Source: Blautia hansenii (GTDB lineage: Bacteria; Bacillota; Clostridia; Lachnospirales; Lachnospiraceae). From it: a stretch of DNA of 64,000 nucleotides. Within the stretch, counting starts at the first letter, position 1; each line of letters opens with the position of its first letter. The translations under genes were made by a program, and so were the position numbers. The stretch lies in contig NZ_JAAITA010000007.1 in NCBI RefSeq assembly GCF_013304445.1, positions 1 to 64,000 of the forward strand, read 5' to 3'. The notes under the pieces are model-generated. The model did not search any database. It saw only the letters and a list, made by a program, of their open reading frames with translations, and was not told where the DNA came from. Shown one piece after another: positions 1 through 6,702 of this stretch.

Positions 1-75
1 GAAGAGGAAGCAGTATCAATTTAATATAGCAATTATTTAATATTCGTTATACTAGATACTGAGCATCAAACGGAA

Positions 76-2013
76 TTGGCCTATTTGCATGAACAGCTTA
101 TAGAGGGAGAACCAGTACAAGACAAGTCATGGAGATATGCAGAAGAATATCTGATGCAGTTAGGAATTTATAATGTGATATTAGTAGAAGAAAATGATGT
201 TCGAAATTATAAAAGGTTTCTGCTTGAGGACAGGGACTGTACGATCAGGGCAGCAAATAGTATGACATCATTTCTCAGAAACAAAAAAGCATACTGGATC
301 GAACAAGAATATGGTGATCTACTGGAAGAAATTCGGCAGTGCGAAGGCATCGAAATGCCATTGACGGGTAATATCAAAAATTTTCTTATTCGGGAAGGGA
401 TACACCATATCCGAGAAATCGATTATTCTATCCGAGAAAAATATGAACAGTATCTTATGAAGGAAAAGAAGCCAGAACAGGTACTTCGGTATTTAAAGAC
501 ATTGGATCGAATCAAGCAATATCATATCAGACAGGAAATGAAACAATTTGCAAACATAAAAAAATTTTATTTGAAATACGAACAGCAGATCCTTTTCCTG
601 CCATATCTGCCAGATCAGAAACTGGCTATGGAATTTGATAAGGTACGTGATAAGACAGAATTGGTATGGGACTTTAGTGTCAAGGCTTCAGAAAAGATGA
701 AACAGCAGATTTTTCAACTACTCATACATATTCTTGAGAATGTAAAGGATCCAAAGGATCGGAGAGTACGATTCCTGCTTCCTATGCAGTGGATGTATCA
801 ATATTGCATCAAGCAAGGGATAGTAGATATAGAAACCATAGAACAGGAAGAGATTGAAAAATTAGAAGAGATAGTAAAGCAGAAGGTGGTTAACTATAAA
901 AACTCCATGCAGATTGTGGATAACAGTCGAAAAATTCTCTTTATGAGTGGAAAGCAGATCCACTGGCATGCAAATGTATGGTACATGGAAAGATTCCACC
1001 TTGCGCCAGAAAGAGTGAATCCATGTAATCCGGTGAATAGGTTATCTTTTTACCAAGTAGAAAATTTAAACAATAGAAAGCTGCTACAGGAATATGCAAG
1101 ATATCAGATAGGAATCACAGGTCTGACCATTGGAAATATTCGAAGCCAGCAAAACTATGTGAAAAAATTTCTAAAGTATTTAGGGCCTGACGTATGTGCT
1201 CTTGATGTAACTGAAAAACAGATAGGTGCATATTTTAAGGAAATCCAGCAACAAGAAATTCAAGCAGAAACTGTGAACCGGCAGATACTGGATATCACAA
1301 AATTCTATGAGTACCTAAAGATAAAAAAACATATTAAGGCAATTCCGTTTCACCCGGAGTACTATGAGCAGAAAGTATATCCTATACATCATGACAGGAG
1401 CGTTGATGAAGATATTTATATGGAAATACTTCACAAACTGAATTTATTTCCAGAAGAATTGCGGTTGATCTTCCTGCATCTATGGGCAACAGGGTTAAGG
1501 ATCAGCGAAGTATGTACGCTAAAAGGAGATGCATACTACTGGGATGGAGAGGATGCCTGGATCAAAGTGTATCAGATCAAAATGAAGGCAGATAAAATGA
1601 TTCCTGTTCCATTTATGCTGTATGAGGTTATGCAACAATACATAAAGAAAAATCATATTCATGCAAACGATTATGTTTTTCAAGCTGAACAGGGAGGAGC
1701 ATATAGAATAGGTTCATTTGTAAAACGTTTTCGAACGCAATGTAAAAAACACAAAATAGCAGATTGTGAGTATGTATTTAAAACACATGATTACAGACAT
1801 ACGCTGGCAACCCAATTTTATGATGATGGTGTACCGATACAAACAATTCGTGATTACCTTGGACATGTAGCAGAAGAAATGACTAAACAGTATGTGGACT
1901 ATATGCCTAAGAAGATTGAAAAAGCAAATGACAATTACTTTGATAAACCAGAAAATAATATTGCTTTGACAATCACACCAAAGAAGCGGAGATATAGACA
2001 TGAAAAAGGATAG
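76..2013 (+). CDS. Large tyrosine recombinase, TnpB-like
   Basis: A 645-residue protein close in length to Tn554 TnpB (about 630). The C-terminal third is a tyrosine recombinase catalytic domain: Arg475 in GLRISEV, His571 and Arg574 in HDYRH, His597 in LGH, and nucleophile Tyr606 in KQYVDY. An N-terminal SAM-like core-binding segment (around 335-430) precedes it, and the first 300 residues are a long basic/acidic extension typical of this subfamily. It would cut and rejoin element ends together with partner recombinases. The start is uncertain: position 76 is a TTG with no clear ribosome site, and the frame is open back to a stop at 22-24, so translation may be coupled to an upstream recombinase outside the window. 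The stop overlaps the next gene by 14 bases. Confidence 0.85.
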   Translation: MAYLHEQLIEGEPVQDKSWRYAEEYLMQLGIYNVILVEENDVRNYKRFLLEDRDCTIRAANSMTSFLRNKKAYWIEQEYGDLLEEIRQCEGIEMPLTGNIKNFLIREGIHHIREIDYSIREKYEQYLMKEKKPEQVLRYLKTLDRIKQYHIRQEMKQFANIKKFYLKYEQQILFLPYLPDQKLAMEFDKVRDKTELVWDFSVKASEKMKQQIFQLLIHILENVKDPKDRRVRFLLPMQWMYQYCIKQGIVDIETIEQEEIEKLEEIVKQKVVNYKNSMQIVDNSRKILFMSGKQIHWHANVWYMERFHLAPERVNPCNPVNRLSFYQVENLNNRKLLQEYARYQIGITGLTIGNIRSQQNYVKKFLKYLGPDVCALDVTEKQIGAYFKEIQQQEIQAETVNRQILDITKFYEYLKIKKHIKAIPFHPEYYEQKVYPIHHDRSVDEDIYMEILHKLNLFPEELRLIFLHLWATGLRISEVCTLKGDAYYWDGEDAWIKVYQIKMKADKMIPVPFMLYEVMQQYIKKNHIHANDYVFQAEQGGAYRIGSFVKRFRTQCKKHKIADCEYVFKTHDYRHTLATQFYDDGVPIQTIRDYLGHVAEEMTKQYVDYMPKKIEKANDNYFDKPENNIALTITPKKRRYRHEKG

Positions 2014-3496
2014 GATACATATTTACGAAATGGAAAGCTATAAGCATGCCTCAGAAGAACAAAGAAATTCTATGAGAATATGTAAGATCCGTTATTTTGA
2101 TCTGGAAGGGCTACCATCTAAGGAAGTGAAAGAAATCTTAGAAGCCTTTATATGGGAACGGGGGAAGACTTTAGCATTATCGAGCCTTGCTACTGAACTA
2201 ACCACCTATAACAATATACGGAAGTTTTTGATAGAGAAGAATATAACAGTATTGCAGAATGCTGGTCCAGAAAAGACGGTCAGAATTTTAAAGGGGTGGA
2301 TGTTAGAAAAGGGATTGGCCTTGTCCAGCATGAAATACCGGGCTGCTTACGATATAACAGCCAGAGAAACACCAGCATTGGAAAGAAAACTGCGTCAGAT
2401 TCTAAAATTTGCTGAAGTGAAAGATGAACGGGAAGAACAGGAAAAAGATATATGGGAGTTGGAGAAATTTGAATTTCCAATCAGAAGAAATCCCATAAAA
2501 AATGTGAAGACCCTTAACTTCACCGATATTTTACAGCCGGATATCAGAGAAGAGGTAAAAAGAACCATATTCTTACATTTAAAATATTCCGCACTTGGCA
2601 CAATACATTCAGAGATGACTGCAGTAAAGAGATTTAGCCGCTTTTTAAATGTAAGAAAGCCAGAGCTGGAATCATTACAGGAATTGAGTCGAGAAGATAT
2701 TGAAGACTATTTGATATACTTACAGACGGAGACAACCGAAAGAAAGAACTATCGTTCCGATCTGTATGGCTTAAAACGTGTGATTGAAGATGTGGGGAAT
2801 ATATATGAGAGAAGGCATCTTCTGCAACTTTTCTTAAATAATGATTTTCCAAGTACACCACGATATCAGTTTAAATTTTATTCAGATGCTACAATTAAGC
2901 GATTGAATTCCCACATTTTTAATATGGACGAGCAGATAGCCAGGGCATTGATCGTTCACCAGCTTTTGGGAACACGCATTTCCGATACGCTTACTTTAAG
3001 AATGGATTGTCTTAGAGAGAAAGAAGGGAGATATTTTGTCCGGATTGATCAAGTGAAATCCATTACTTATGAAAAGGCAGTTAGTAATGAGGTGGGGCGC
3101 TTGATTTTAAAAGCCATGGAATATACCAAAGAGCGTTACGGGGAAACAGAATATGTTTTTGTAAAAAAAGATGATCCCACGAAACCATATCAATATGGAA
3201 TGATCCAGGCACAAGTTATGAGGATGATCCGGCAGAAAGATATACGGGATGATAATGGGGAACTGCTGAAATTCGGGACACATATTTTTAGACACTGTTA
3301 TGGGAAAAAATTGACCGAGCTTCATATCGAGGATTGGATGATAGCAAGACTACTTGGACATAAAACATTACAGAGTGTCCACCACTACCGGAGAATCGGG
3401 AATAAAGTTATGGCTGATGAAACGAGAAAAACCAGAGAAAAAATGGACCTTATATTAATGGACATAATAAAAGGATGGGATGGATATGAATTATGA
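2000..3496 (+). CDS. Tyrosine recombinase/integrase, third member of the trio
   Basis: A 498-residue tyrosine recombinase with an intact catalytic set: Arg326 in GTRISDT, His428 and Arg431 in HIFRH, His454 in LLGHK, and Tyr463 in HHYRRI. Residues about 185-290 look like a core-binding domain. The start ATG lies inside the 3' end of the preceding recombinase gene, which implies translational coupling, and the 3' end overlaps the first small HTH gene by 11 bases. In trio elements all recombinases are thought to be needed together for excision and integration; this one is probably the last of three. It shows no frameshift or lost catalytic residue, so the element could still be active. Confidence 0.85.
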   Translation: MKKDRIHIYEMESYKHASEEQRNSMRICKIRYFDLEGLPSKEVKEILEAFIWERGKTLALSSLATELTTYNNIRKFLIEKNITVLQNAGPEKTVRILKGWMLEKGLALSSMKYRAAYDITARETPALERKLRQILKFAEVKDEREEQEKDIWELEKFEFPIRRNPIKNVKTLNFTDILQPDIREEVKRTIFLHLKYSALGTIHSEMTAVKRFSRFLNVRKPELESLQELSREDIEDYLIYLQTETTERKNYRSDLYGLKRVIEDVGNIYERRHLLQLFLNNDFPSTPRYQFKFYSDATIKRLNSHIFNMDEQIARALIVHQLLGTRISDTLTLRMDCLREKEGRYFVRIDQVKSITYEKAVSNEVGRLILKAMEYTKERYGETEYVFVKKDDPTKPYQYGMIQAQVMRMIRQKDIRDDNGELLKFGTHIFRHCYGKKLTELHIEDWMIARLLGHKTLQSVHHYRRIGNKVMADETRKTREKMDLILMDIIKGWDGYEL

Positions 3497-3908
3497 AAAG
3501 ATGATAGCCGTGAATCGGATCGAAAGTGAGCAGAAAATTAAGCTGGCCACGATGGCTATAGAACAGTTGATAGAAAGGGGGGAATATCCATCGGTAACTC
3601 TGCTGGTGAAAAAAACTGGCTTATCAAGAGGGTTCTTTTATAAAAATCCAGAAGTGAGAAGCAGGTTGGATGCAGCCGTGCAATCGCCCAATGTATCATG
3701 TCGAAGAATTTGGAGTGAGAGTAAAGATTCAAAGAATGACAACACCGAGGCACTGCAGATGGATATCATGGAATATAAGGTCAGAAACCGAAGTTTGTCT
3801 CAGGAAAACGAGGAATTGCGAGGTCAGATAGAGGAACTTAAGGTTCAAGTGGAGAAACTAAAAAGCAGGATTAAAAAGAAAGAGCTTTCCATGCTGAAAA
3901 AATTATAA
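3486..3908 (+). CDS. Small HTH/coiled-coil transposition protein, copy 1 (DUF6262-like)
   Basis: A 140-residue protein resembling Tn554 TnpC / DUF6262. The N-terminus (MNYEKMIAVN) aligns with the start of the three following paralogues (MKYDK...), so ATG 3486 is preferred to ATG 3480. Residues about 17-62 form a helix-turn-helix-like unit (VTLLVKKTGLSRGFFYKN). Residues about 93-135 are a heptad-rich charged coiled coil ending in a Lys-rich tail. TnpC of Tn554 affects the orientation and efficiency of transposition, and a DNA-end-binding accessory role is inferred here. The gene overlaps the upstream recombinase by 11 bases. Confidence 0.7.
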   Translation: MNYEKMIAVNRIESEQKIKLATMAIEQLIERGEYPSVTLLVKKTGLSRGFFYKNPEVRSRLDAAVQSPNVSCRRIWSESKDSKNDNTEALQMDIMEYKVRNRSLSQENEELRGQIEELKVQVEKLKSRIKKKELSMLKKL

Positions 3909-3929
3909 TTAAAGGAAAAGGTATCTGAT

Positions 3930-4283
3930 ATGAAGTACGATAAGATTGTAGAGATAAGTAAAGAAAGATCAAGACAGAATACGGAAGTGGCACTTAGGGC
4001 AATAGAGGAAATGCTGAGAGAAGGGGAATGGATTACCGTTGCCGAGCTTGCCAAGAGAACAAAATTATCAAGAGCAAATTTTTATGTGAATAAAGACATT
4101 AGAAAGTCACTTGATGATGCTAGATACAGGCAACAGCGTATGTTAAAAATAAACTTTGACAGCGTGATGGAAATCGAAGATTTGCAACAAAAATTGCGAA
4201 AACTTAATTTGGAAATGGTGAAACTGAGAGTTGAAAATCAAGAACTACAAGTAATCAACCGGAATCTTCAGAAAGAAATATAA
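3930..4283 (+). CDS. Small HTH/coiled-coil transposition protein, copy 2 (DUF6262-like)
   Basis: A 117-residue paralogue of the preceding gene, starting MKYDKIVEIS. The HTH-like block includes VAELAKRTKLSRANFYVN (about residues 37-54), followed by a Leu-heptad coiled coil (about 82-115). It is preceded by an AAAGGAAAAGG ribosome site and lies 21 bases after copy 1. It shares the pattern VT/VA-x-L-x-K/R-x-T with the other copies, but most other positions differ, so the duplication is not recent. The predicted role is an accessory DNA-binding protein of the transposon, possibly acting as a hetero-oligomer with its neighbours (inference). Confidence 0.68.
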   Translation: MKYDKIVEISKERSRQNTEVALRAIEEMLREGEWITVAELAKRTKLSRANFYVNKDIRKSLDDARYRQQRMLKINFDSVMEIEDLQQKLRKLNLEMVKLRVENQELQVINRNLQKEI

Positions 4284-4298
4284 GTGAGGATGGACGGC

Positions 4299-4706
4299 AT
4301 GAAATACGATAAAGTAGTTGAAATGAATCAGAAAATTGGTAAGCAAAATGCCCGTATCGTGGAAAAAGAGATTGAAAGAATGATAGAAAATGGTGAAAGA
4401 GTTACGGTAGCAGCATTACAAAGATATACTGGATTTTCAAATTCATTCTTTTACAAAAATAAACTTGTTCGTGAAATTTTGTATGAAGCAATTCGAAAGC
4501 AGAATCAGTGTTATAAAAATAACCTTACTTCGATGTGTACTCAACAAGAGATAGAAGAAAAGATGATAAAACAACAAAAACAAATTTTACAGCTGGAGTT
4601 AGAGAAGAGGAAGTTGCTTGAGGAGAATCAAAGGTTGAGAGAGGTGTGTGGGATTTTAGGAAAGGAGAAAAGAGAAAATGAAATACGACAAAATAGTCGC
4701 TATTAG
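4299..4706 (+). CDS. Small HTH/coiled-coil transposition protein, copy 3 (DUF6262-like)
   Basis: The third paralogue, 135 residues from ATG 4299 (MKYDKVVEMN). An upstream GTG (4284) and ATG (4290) are in frame, but family alignment and the GTGAGGA ribosome site favour 4299. The HTH-like block contains VAALQRYTGFSNSFFYKN, and the C-terminal half is a Gln/Glu/Lys-rich coiled coil. The 3' end overlaps copy 4 by 29 bases in another frame, so the two are probably translationally coupled. Confidence 0.66.
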   Translation: MKYDKVVEMNQKIGKQNARIVEKEIERMIENGERVTVAALQRYTGFSNSFFYKNKLVREILYEAIRKQNQCYKNNLTSMCTQQEIEEKMIKQQKQILQLELEKRKLLEENQRLREVCGILGKEKRENEIRQNSRY

Positions 4707-5055
4707 TCAAGAAAAAAGTAAGGTTAAAGCTGAGATTGCAAAGCAAGAAATTCAAAATATGCTGGATAGAAAAGAAAAAGTGACAATGGCTGCACTGATA
4801 AGAAAAACAGGATTTTCTAAAACACTTTTTTACAGAAATATAGAAGTTAGGACAGCACTAGATAAGGCATATAGGGAACAAGGTGCGTGTTATAATCCGA
4901 AGCAGATTATTGTTGATAAAGTTATGGAAGAAAAGTTAAATACATTGAAGATTGCAGTTACCAAGCTTAAGAAGGAAAATATAAAATTAACATTACAAAA
5001 TGAAGAACTTTTAAAAGAGATTGAAAGATTAAAATTGCAGCTAGAAAAGAAATAA
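4678..5055 (+). CDS. Small HTH/coiled-coil transposition protein, copy 4 (DUF6262-like)
   Basis: The fourth and last paralogue, 125 residues, the same length as Tn554 TnpC. It starts MKYDKIVAIS with a strong ribosome site (AAAGGAG) embedded in the 3' end of copy 3. It has an HTH-like block (MAALIRKTGFSKTLFYRN) and then a long Leu/Lys/Glu coiled coil (about 80-125). It is the last intact gene of the element before its inferred right end. Confidence 0.66.
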   Translation: MKYDKIVAISQEKSKVKAEIAKQEIQNMLDRKEKVTMAALIRKTGFSKTLFYRNIEVRTALDKAYREQGACYNPKQIIVDKVMEEKLNTLKIAVTKLKKENIKLTLQNEELLKEIERLKLQLEKK

Positions 5056-5086
5056 ACATATAAAAATAAAATAGAAAATTATGGAC

Positions 5087-5131
5087 AATACGGTGGCTTG
5101 ATTGGGAAATTAAGGTTGCCGTATTTCTTTA
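5087..5131 (+). terminator. Possible terminator at the end of the transposon operon
   Basis: The inverted repeat AATACGG (5087-5093) / CCGTATT (5119-5125) is followed by a T-rich stretch just after the last small HTH gene. The loop is long (25 bases), so the hairpin is weak. It could instead be a subterminal binding site for the recombinases. Confidence 0.35.
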
Positions 5132-5157
5132 TTTAATAGATAAAATGACCAAGGTGC

Positions 5158-5319
5158 ATGCAGGAGGCTGTGGTTACGCCCAGTATCCATGCGGTTTCCA
5201 GAGATGGGGCTAGATTTATAGTTATATTAATCGGTCTTGTCATCATCTTTAAAGAGCAGCTCAATAGTCTGGTAAAAAATATTCTTTCAAAAATCACAAA
5301 ACAAAGCAATAGTATATAA
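5158..5319 (+). pseudogene. Truncated Flp (type IVb) pilin, 3' remnant
   Basis: From ATG 5158 the frame encodes 53 residues whose last 33 or so (IVILIGLVIIFKEQ followed by LNSLVKNILSKITKQSNSI) match the membrane helix and tail of clostridial Flp1 pilins. The pilin N-terminus (basic leader, processing Gly and Glu, first half of the helix) is missing. It is replaced by unrelated sequence, and in-frame stops lie upstream of 5158. It sits exactly where flp is expected, just before the DUF5702 gene of the tad operon. The likely cause is the transposon insertion on the left, with the junction near 5205-5220. The rest of the pilin gene and the pilus ATPase/TadBC genes would then lie left of the element, outside the window. 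Confidence 0.7.
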
Positions 5320-5331
5320 GGCGGTGAAGGC

Positions 5332-6702
5332 ATGAAGCAAAAAGGAAGTATGACAATCGCCATGAGCCTGATGCTTCTGGCCTTTCTGCCCTTGATAGCG
5401 GTGACTATCCGTGCGTCGCAGACAGCCTGTGCCAGAGTACAGTCTGTCAATGGAATAGATACAGCTTTGTACTCTCTTTTTTCAGAATACGATAAGGAAC
5501 TTCTGGAAACGTACAATCTGTTCTTTCTTGACGCCGGATATGGCACCGGAAAACTGGATATCGGACAGATGATTAGTCAGGCAGAGCATTATGCCAAGCC
5601 GGTATTATCTTCCGGCATGACAAGGTGCAGTATACAGGCTTGTGGGGCGGAGGGCTTTCGCCTTGCCTCAGACAGAAAAGGCAAAGCGGTAGAACAGCAG
5701 ATAATTCGGTATATGAAAGGCAATCTTGGAGCTGCAGGTATAGAAAAATTAAAAGATAAATTGGAAGAAAACAGAACAATCCTCCAGCAGCAGGAGGAGA
5801 TTCAGGCACAGGGCATGGAAGAAACAGTTCCGGAAAATGCTGCACCCATGGAAGGGATTTCAGCAGAAAACAATCCTCTGGAGATTATAAAAAGTTTGAA
5901 AAACAATGGATTTCTGGGATTGGTGCTGCCTGCAGATACCCAGGTGTCAGAAAAAGTGCAGCCGCTGGGGGAAGTTCTTTCTCACAGAACCATAGAAACC
6001 GGTCAGGGAGATTTTGCTCAGATGGATGTGAAAAGTTCTGTGACGGATAAACTGCTGATACAGGAGTATGTGTTGGAAAAGCTGGGTACTTTTACAGAAC
6101 CGGGAAAGGAAGGTGCCCTGGATTATCAGGCAGAGTATGTACTAGGTGGAAAAGCAAGTGATAAAGAAAATTTATCCTATGTAGTAAACAGGCTTTTACT
6201 CATTCGGGAACCGGCCAATCTGGCATTTTTGTATACGGATGCGCAGAAGCGGGCAGAACTGGAGGCTTGTGCAGCAGCTTTGTCGTTTCTTCTTTTGATA
6301 CCGGAAGGCATGGAACTGGTGCAGGGTGTGCTGGCAGCAGGCTGGGCTTATGTGGAAAGTTTGTCAGATGTGAGGATTCTGCTGTCTGGCGGAAAAGTGC
6401 CATTGATAAAGGATAGCACAGCCTGGAAGACACAGTTGGAAAATCTGAATCAAAATACTTCCATTACAGGTGGAAGAGGGCAGGATTATGAGGAGTATCT
6501 TCGCATTTTGTTTACATTTGCACCAAAGGAAAAGAGCCTTATGAGAACTATGGATATGATAGAACAAAATATATGTAAAACAGAAGGACGGGAAAACTTC
6601 CGCTTTGATGTTTGTGTGGATGCGGTTTCCTTATCTTTTCTGATAAAAGGTCCAAACAATATGACCTGGCAGGCAGACAGATTTTATACATATGATATGT
6701 AA
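5332..6702 (+). CDS. DUF5702 protein of the Tad pilus locus
   Basis: A 456-residue protein beginning MKQKGSMTIAMSLMLLAF, a short basic leader and one hydrophobic helix (about 6-26). That is the TadG-like arrangement of pseudopilins that keep most of their mass outside the membrane. The rest is a mixed extracellular domain with a conserved SLFSEYDKELLETYNLFFLD segment (residues 47-66) and a second hydrophobic stretch near 320-340. The family is found in clostridial tad operons between the flp pilin and TadE genes, as here. The exact function is unknown; a minor pilus component or assembly factor is inferred. A GGCGGTGAAGG ribosome site precedes ATG 5332. Confidence 0.75.
   Translation: MKQKGSMTIAMSLMLLAFLPLIAVTIRASQTACARVQSVNGIDTALYSLFSEYDKELLETYNLFFLDAGYGTGKLDIGQMISQAEHYAKPVLSSGMTRCSIQACGAEGFRLASDRKGKAVEQQIIRYMKGNLGAAGIEKLKDKLEENRTILQQQEEIQAQGMEETVPENAAPMEGISAENNPLEIIKSLKNNGFLGLVLPADTQVSEKVQPLGEVLSHRTIETGQGDFAQMDVKSSVTDKLLIQEYVLEKLGTFTEPGKEGALDYQAEYVLGGKASDKENLSYVVNRLLLIREPANLAFLYTDAQKRAELEACAAALSFLLLIPEGMELVQGVLAAGWAYVESLSDVRILLSGGKVPLIKDSTAWKTQLENLNQNTSITGGRGQDYEEYLRILFTFAPKEKSLMRTMDMIEQNICKTEGRENFRFDVCVDAVSLSFLIKGPNNMTWQADRFYTYDM

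What the first reader, a model, noticed from the sequence alone, without database searches (positions are those of the whole stretch)
1..5055. Recombinase-trio element carrying four tandem TnpC-like genes
Tn554 has one TnpC-type gene after its recombinases. Here four divergent paralogues (140, 117, 135 and 125 residues) follow two recombinase genes, all overlapping or closely spaced. All four keep the MKYDK-type start, an HTH block with a T-x-x-S-x-x-x-F-Y pattern, and a C-terminal coiled coil, but differ elsewhere. Old duplication plus retained coiled coils suggests a hetero-oligomeric set, perhaps with each member reading a different end, target or orientation signal. Sequence shows the array; the hetero-oligomer idea is inference.
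Basis: partly seen in the sequence, partly recalled or inferred. Interest (0 to 1): 0.72.

Follow-up and report, generated by a model that had tools for sequence, protein, structure and literature searches.

The report
Gut mobile element's TnpC-like gene array
A mobile DNA element that sits inside a pilus gene of a gut-type bacterium carries four related copies of a small helper gene that distant relatives carry once; one copy keeps the ancestral form and the others are a second, derived type, which suggests a division of labour among the helpers.

Summary
All four small proteins belong to DUF6262, the family of Tn554-type TnpC, and follow two tyrosine recombinases. Corrections: bases 1-55 are the end of a multicopy IS that cuts off the first codons of recombinase B; the first recombinase (A) lies on another contig, and a 98% identical metagenomic record shows A and B uninterrupted; the element's right end is base 5218, inside a tad-locus pilin gene, followed by a six-base footprint as in Tn554 and SEs.

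Relatives explain the array. Elements with a close C recombinase carry two copies (11 of 14 loci), three (2) or four (this window); more distant ones carry one. Each of the 14 arrays has one copy (alpha) with a C-terminal tail also found in the closest single-copy relatives, plus one to three tail-less copies (beta). From mid-alpha to the right end, sister elements can differ strongly although their recombinases are nearly identical. So "four equal paralogues" becomes one alpha plus three betas. Hetero-oligomers are plausible but untested; pilin targeting does not need beta, since a single-copy element sits in the same kind of gene. New variant of a known kind; this copy is probably immobile now.

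The parts
1..55 (.). End of a multicopy insertion sequence; same 55 bases at ends of contigs C34, C23, C16, C9, an 85-86% variant at C44 and C40; CTAG at all 7 junctions
   Evidence: DUF6262 in this genome only on C73
56..2013 (+). Tyrosine recombinase B (TnpB-size), 5' end cut off by the IS; longest ORF from TTG at 76
   Evidence: Pfam Phage_integrase 89.8 bits; 56% identical to the 658-aa B of L071/L072, alignment starts at their residue 6
2000..3496 (+). Tyrosine recombinase C, 498 aa, R..HxxR..H..Y complete
3486..3908 (+). D1 = alpha DUF6262 protein, 140 aa, keeps the C-terminal tail KKKELSMLKKL
   Evidence: model HTH + long helix
3930..4283 (+). D2 = beta DUF6262 protein, 117 aa, no tail
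4299..4706 (+). D3 = beta DUF6262 protein, 135 aa, no tail (GTG at 4284 is an alternative start)
4678..5055 (+). D4 = beta DUF6262 protein, 125 aa, no tail; overlaps D3 by 29 bases
   Evidence: model
5056..5218 (.). Non-coding right end of the element; terminal GGGGCTAGATTTA is an imperfect inverted repeat of the left end GAAATTTCACCCC on contig C25
5219..5224 (.). Six-base footprint TAGTTA, different from the six bases left of the element (TGGTGG) and from the empty site in G007
5225..5319 (+). 3' part of the interrupted Flp-type pilin gene of the host tad locus (target)
   Evidence: uninterrupted pilin genes in G007, G004, G008, G013
5332..6702 (+). Host tad-locus gene next to the target (DUF5702), outside the element
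   Evidence: a match in 20 of 20 genomes of the genus

Best explanation
This is the operon end of a site-specific integrative element of the Tn554/GInt/SE kind, with three tyrosine recombinases (A 372, B about 650, C 498 aa) and an array of TnpC/GinD/Srap-like accessory proteins, inserted in a tad pilin gene. Shown by sequence: identity of the genes, both junctions, the inverted ends, the six-base footprint, the alpha/beta split of the arrays, and replacement of the array together with the right end between close sister elements. Inferred: the accessory proteins bind DNA through the HTH near the element's right end and pair through their coiled coils. Alpha carries the ancestral role, and its C-terminal tail is the likely contact to a recombinase. 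Beta proteins have lost that contact and act as extra DNA-binding partners of alpha, so that alpha plus beta together recognise this element's own end. The window copy has multiplied beta to three. The array looks intact, but this copy is likely silent because an IS cuts the start of B.
For: DUF6262 membership of D1-D4 and of the TnpC-position protein of a Tn554-type operon. Array size by lineage: one copy in distant elements, two or three in close ones, four here. Tree of 37 D proteins (22 from 9 of the 14 arrays, 15 single copies): array copies apart from single copies (100/98), beta 97/89, alpha 91/86. One tailed copy per array in 14 of 14 (13 by strict pattern, L148 by eye). Sisters L153 and L155: 86-99% identical per 150-base window through B, C and the first part of alpha, then 48-63% through the end of alpha, beta and right end. 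Third-position difference C 0.14, beta 0.53 (L155/L153); C 0.23, alpha 0.54, beta 0.62 (L072/L149); single-copy controls C 0.16-0.18, D 0.16-0.24. Junctions, inverted ends, footprint. Catalytic pattern: A 13 of 13, B 12 of 13, C 13 of 13. GinD and Srap are needed for recombination and are compared with TnpC in print (PMC5385486, PMC10214605, passages).
Against: No direct evidence of DNA binding, heteromers or tail-recombinase contact. Foldseek gave no significant match; TetR-like HTHs are among the top hits but with E of about 1 or worse. The replaced block can be one ordinary crossover in which neighbouring sequence travels together; its donor is unknown, and L153 is as similar to L151 before the break (72-87%) as after it (71-85%). 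Not every pair shows it: L155 and L147 agree throughout (C 0.09, alpha 0.09, beta 0.11), and alpha is no more diverged than C in 6 further pairs of the 15. Pilin targeting needs no beta (L086). The tail is clear in only 8 of 14 single-copy relatives looked at, L165 being cut off. No second four-copy array was found, so conservation of D2 and D3 could not be tested; their place inside beta is weakly supported (81/73). B is truncated here.
Confidence: 0.55

Rival explanations
1. Redundant duplication: beta copies are extra doses of a TnpC-like protein or decaying relics with no separate role; tandem homology lets copy number drift up and down.
For: Copy number varies 2-4 within one clade; the extra window copies D2 and D3 have long branches and no orthologue was found.
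Against: Each of 14 arrays keeps exactly one tailed and at least one tail-less copy. dN/dS of beta is 0.09 in the 2 of 8 pairs where it could be computed (L155/L147, L153/L151); in the others dS was saturated or zero. Neutral drift to 40% identity closes the frames of D2-D4 in 996-1000 of 1000 runs.
Confidence: 0.2
2. Beta proteins are regulators (repressors of the operon or of a sister element, an immunity function) rather than parts of the recombination complex; their exchange reflects competition for one pilin site.
For: TetR-like HTH hints; replaced blocks and strong divergence; 12 of 14 clade elements occupy the same kind of site.
Against: The window's right end has no direct repeats and one 13-base inverted pair, so no operator array is evident there; promoter regions were not compared. 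Single members of this kind in GInts and SEs are needed for recombination (PMC5385486, PMC10214605, passages).
Confidence: 0.15
3. Each D reads a different signal (left end, right end, target, orientation).
For: Four divergent HTHs.
Against: Same target codons and similar terminal right-end bases with 2, 3 or 4 copies, and a pilin target also with one copy.
Confidence: 0.1

Closest known systems
Tn554 family transposons (TnpA, TnpB, TnpC)
   Same: Tyrosine recombinases of ordinary and large size, DUF6262 gene downstream, site specificity, imperfect inverted ends, six-base footprint
   Different: Three recombinases instead of two, 2-4 DUF6262 genes, D genes next to the right terminus with cargo on the other side, DinG-like helicase gene before A
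GInts (ginABCD)
   Same: Three recombinase genes plus a small TnpC-like gene in one operon; large cargo; site-specific insertion
   Different: GinC lacks catalytic residues and GinD is single (PMC5385486 and PMC10214605, passages); here A, B and C show R..HxxR..H..Y and D is an array
SEs (intA, tfp, intB, srap)
   Same: Six-base footprint, inverted ends, small coiled-coil accessory protein with a low-confidence TetR-like hint
   Different: Tfp is non-catalytic, Srap single, reported only in Gammaproteobacteria (PMC10214605, passages)
RIT elements
   Same: Three adjacent recombinase genes
   Different: Archetype RIT recombinases are 315-410 aa (PMC10214605, passage); here B is about 650 and C about 500 aa, and a DUF6262 array follows

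Membership tests
DUF6262 (Pfam PF19776) | Score above the curated cut-off of 29 bits | tested here: met
   97.2, 87.4, 102.1 and 116.5 bits for D1-D4
Tn554 family | TnpC-like DUF6262 gene after the recombinase genes | tested here: met
Tn554 family | Two recombinases and one TnpC | tested here: not met
   Three recombinases and four DUF6262 genes
Tn554 family / SEs | Six-base footprint without target duplication | tested here: met
   G000: left TGGTGG, right TAGTTA; G225: left TCGTGG, right TGGTGG; G211: TGGTCG on both sides, so uninformative; 2 of 3 elements with both ends read differ
GInt | Three recombinases plus small TnpC-like gene in one operon | tested here: met
   Gene order A-B-C-D in relatives L072, L145-L149, L151-L155; in the window genome A is on another contig
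GInt | Non-catalytic third recombinase and a single GinD | tested here: not met
   C has the pattern in 13 of 13; D is an array
SE | Non-catalytic Tfp between intA and intB | tested here: not met
   Order A-B-C with the catalytic pattern in A 13 of 13, B 12 of 13, C 13 of 13
SE | Strand-biased circular copy, no empty site left | not testable with these tools
   Needs PCR or long reads on cells
RIT elements | Three recombinases of 315-410 aa | tested here: not met
   B about 650 and C 498 aa

The most novel reading that the evidence does not exclude
The tail-less beta proteins, the coil of alpha and the element's right end form one exchangeable recognition cassette: alpha and beta pair through matching coiled coils into hetero-oligomers that act only on their own element's end, so that related elements competing for the same pilin site do not mobilise each other. 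A combinatorial, swappable specificity system of this sort is not something I know for tyrosine-recombinase transposons (from memory; the listings showed none). Odds lowered from 0.25 on recheck, because the donor and direction of the replaced block are not settled.
Probability: 0.22. Interest if true: 0.78.

Novelty: new variant of a known kind. Interest (0 to 1): 0.56.

Why it matters
What TnpC, GinD and Srap do beyond 'stimulates and influences orientation' or 'essential' is still open. A clade in which the single accessory protein has split into a tailed alpha and tail-less betas, in varying numbers and naturally replaced as a block, gives ready-made separation-of-function material: tail, coil, HTH and right end can be tested apart. 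It also shows a family of large elements (about 55 and 64 kb in two relatives) that repeatedly interrupts the tad pilin gene of Lachnospiraceae and related gut bacteria, with a conserved DinG-like helicase as a possible further core gene.

Tried and rejected
Tried without gain: plasmid search with D3 (no match); viral contig scans with the C alignment, D3 and D2 (1, 0 and 0 relatives); distant DNA search of the array in phage records (one 49-base match); Foldseek on both models (best E 2.3 and 0.99); PHROGs (no hit for D1, D3, D4 and an unknown family for D2); repeats in right ends that might track copy number (6 stretches, nothing consistent; L148 alone has a 121-base tandem); genus of G211 (2 genomes, no new array); order-level search (392 genomes; besides G000 and G225 only G1113 at clade level, whose contig length equals that of L153).

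Considered and rejected: array as an assembly artefact (open, divergent genes, and two- and three-copy arrays in other genomes); D proteins unrelated to TnpC; beta needed for pilin choice (L086). Pairwise coiled-coil complexes were not predicted: the structure tool models single chains, and I made no heptad scoring.

Full report
The observation. The window opens at the start of contig C73 of a 75-contig genome. Six co-directional genes fill bases 76-5055: recombinases B (645 aa) and C (498 aa) and four small genes, here D1-D4. B and C are Phage_integrase proteins; D1-D4 score 97, 87, 102 and 117 bits against DUF6262, cut-off 29. They are 27-38% identical in pairs. In a simple neutral simulation D2, D3 and D4 (D1 not tried) are open in 4, 0 and 2 of 1000 runs when drift has brought them to 40% identity. 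AlphaFold models of D4 and D1 show an HTH followed by a helix of about 50 residues.

Bases 1-55 are identical to the ends of contigs C34, C23, C16 and C9 and 85-86% like those of C44 and C40, each time followed by different sequence; CTAG stands at all 7 junctions. This is the end of an insertion sequence, not of the first recombinase gene. B lacks about its first eight codons compared with relatives. The first recombinase, A, is on contig C12, 71% identical to A of L072, next to a DinG-like helicase gene. A metagenomic record, MT837298, is 98% identical to both contigs and shows A and B uninterrupted. So a trio is correct, but this copy appears to be broken by an IS and is probably immobile; the assembly does not show the IS in place.

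Ends and target. In genome G007 the pilin gene just upstream of the DUF5702 gene of the tad locus is uninterrupted; in the window it is split. The left junction lies on contig C25...CTGGTGG then GAAATTTCACCCC. The right junction is ...GGGGCTAGATTTA (ends at 5218), TAGTTA (5219-5224), then native TATTAATCGG. The two ends are imperfect inverted repeats, and the six bases at the right differ from those at the left, as described for Tn554 and SEs (PMC10214605, passages). Of three elements with both ends read, G000 and G225 differ on the two sides (G225: TCGTGG and TGGTGG) and G211 has the same six bases (the exact base of the junction was set by eye). Of 14 distinct clade loci, 12 sit at the same codons of a pilin gene (by eye from the translations; L148 alone); L147 has cargo after D and L090 runs into other sequence. 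From the position of the next tad gene and the left ends, the element is about 55 kb in G211 and 64 kb in G225.

Array sizes. A scan of species genomes with the C alignment returned 46 loci, 12 of them with C at 64-70% identity. With the window, L072 (G211) and L090 (G466, whose C is only a fragment), and without L156, which ends inside C, 14 loci can be read: four D in the window, three in L148 and L152, two in eleven. Outside this clade I counted 60 loci: 59 with one D and one (L095) with two about 5 kb apart on opposite strands. DUF6262 searches of 145 relatives and 398 genomes of the phylum listed no other tandem of matches over the cut-off; G011 has one gene in two overlapping pieces, and G554 has six copies, none adjacent.

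Alpha and beta. A tree of 37 D proteins, 22 from 9 of the 14 arrays and 15 single copies, separates array members from single copies (100/98) and, inside, a beta group (97/89) from alpha (91/86) (midpoint root). Alpha ends in a tail such as RKEISLLKRL. Of 15 single copies, 8 end clearly alike (for example NKRDLNLLKNL, SKKELNLIKQI), among them most of those with the closest C; L165 is cut off and 6 end otherwise. Bacilli and Tn554-type members end in other short tails (RGMVYDKF, GDLYIRE). No beta has the tail. Each of the 14 arrays has exactly one tailed copy: 13 by a strict pattern, and L148 (SHKELSILKNL) by eye. In L152 alpha stands second of three, so position is not what defines it. In the window D1 is alpha and D2-D4 are beta; the placing of D2 and D3 within beta is weak (81/73). 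Alpha is the likely keeper of the ancestral function, beta a derived class that multiplied.

Exchange. Sister elements L153 and L155 are 86-99% identical in 150-base windows through B, C and about the first 290 bases of alpha, then only 48-63% through the end of alpha, beta and the right end. L153 stays about equally like L151 throughout (72-87% before, 71-85% after), so the simplest reading is that the block was replaced in the L155 lineage by one of unknown origin; the direction is not settled. Third-position differences over 15 pairs of six arrays agree: L155/L153 C 0.14, alpha 0.20, beta 0.53; L072/L149 C 0.23, alpha 0.54, beta 0.62; L151/L072 C 0.15, alpha 0.07, beta 0.00. But L155/L147 are even throughout (0.09, 0.09, 0.11), and in the six pairs of L155, L147 or L153 with L151 or L072 alpha (0.36-0.43) is about as diverged as C (0.39-0.43). 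Four single-copy pairs, of which three are diverged and two of these nearly the same comparison, have C 0.16-0.18 and D 0.16-0.24. So the block of alpha end, beta and right end has been replaced at least twice by this measure. That fits a recognition cassette, but a crossover next to the end would look the same.

How it probably works. [quoted passage not shown] My reading is that alpha does this basic job with its tail as recombinase contact, and that beta proteins join alpha through coiled coils to bind the element's own end. The family, the split, the tail and the block replacement are shown; binding, pairing and contact are inferred. Beta is not needed to choose the pilin gene, since L086 with one D sits in one too (by eye).

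What it is called. It is not a Tn554 member in the strict sense (three recombinases, several D), not a GInt or SE as described (one of their three recombinase-like proteins is non-catalytic, whereas here the pattern R..HxxR..H..Y is found in A 13 of 13, B 12 of 13, the miss being L151, and C 13 of 13), and not an RIT (sizes). It works like them. I file it as a new variant of a known kind. Paper searches listed nothing on arrays of this family or on pilin-specific elements of this sort; two papers hold the word DUF6262 (listing only, not read); the library holds open-licence papers only. The Tn554 paper of 1988 was not held.

Noticed in passing
L127 1374-3347 (contig C12); L072 13003-14970 and others: A DinG/XPD-like helicase gene lies next before recombinase A in 13 of 13 clade loci where A can be read (L145 only its end) and in 9 of 12 single-D loci checked: a possible further core gene of these elements.
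   Followed up: partly
L127 8975-11576 (contig C12): Likely cargo: a penicillin-binding protein with a MecA_N domain beside a divergently oriented penicillinase-repressor-type regulator gene. That it lies inside the element is probable, not proven.
   Followed up: no
L197 1789-9375 (contig C25): The left end of the element carries a large protein with weak, below-cut-off STAND/AAA matches, a UmuC-like polymerase (named by eye) and a ParM-like actin gene, a plasmid-like set.
   Followed up: no
L148 10819-11053: The right end of this three-D element holds a 121-base tandem duplication (1.9 copies, 83% matches) of end-like sequence, perhaps the relic of an earlier insertion.
   Followed up: partly
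L158, L080, L161 right flanks; L100: Some single-D relatives appear to interrupt other conserved coding motifs: ABC-transporter ATPase genes at the DEPTSGLD motif and, in L100, a ComEC-like gene (by eye).
   Followed up: no
G211:C1:1446000-1463000 (L093): A second recombinase element with one D lies beside the same tad locus that holds the two-D element.
   Followed up: no
L217 (MT837298), L219 (MT835648): Two records named Bacteriophage sp. carry recombinase genes of this element type: L217 is a near copy (98%) of part of this element, and L219 encodes a C relative at 45% identity.
   Followed up: partly
L145, L148, L149, L154 right flanks; window 5161-5319: In several array elements the right end runs in frame into the rest of the pilin (for example ...RQGANF then VVLI), so a chimeric membrane protein could be made; it seems to lack the usual prepilin start (by eye).
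   Followed up: no
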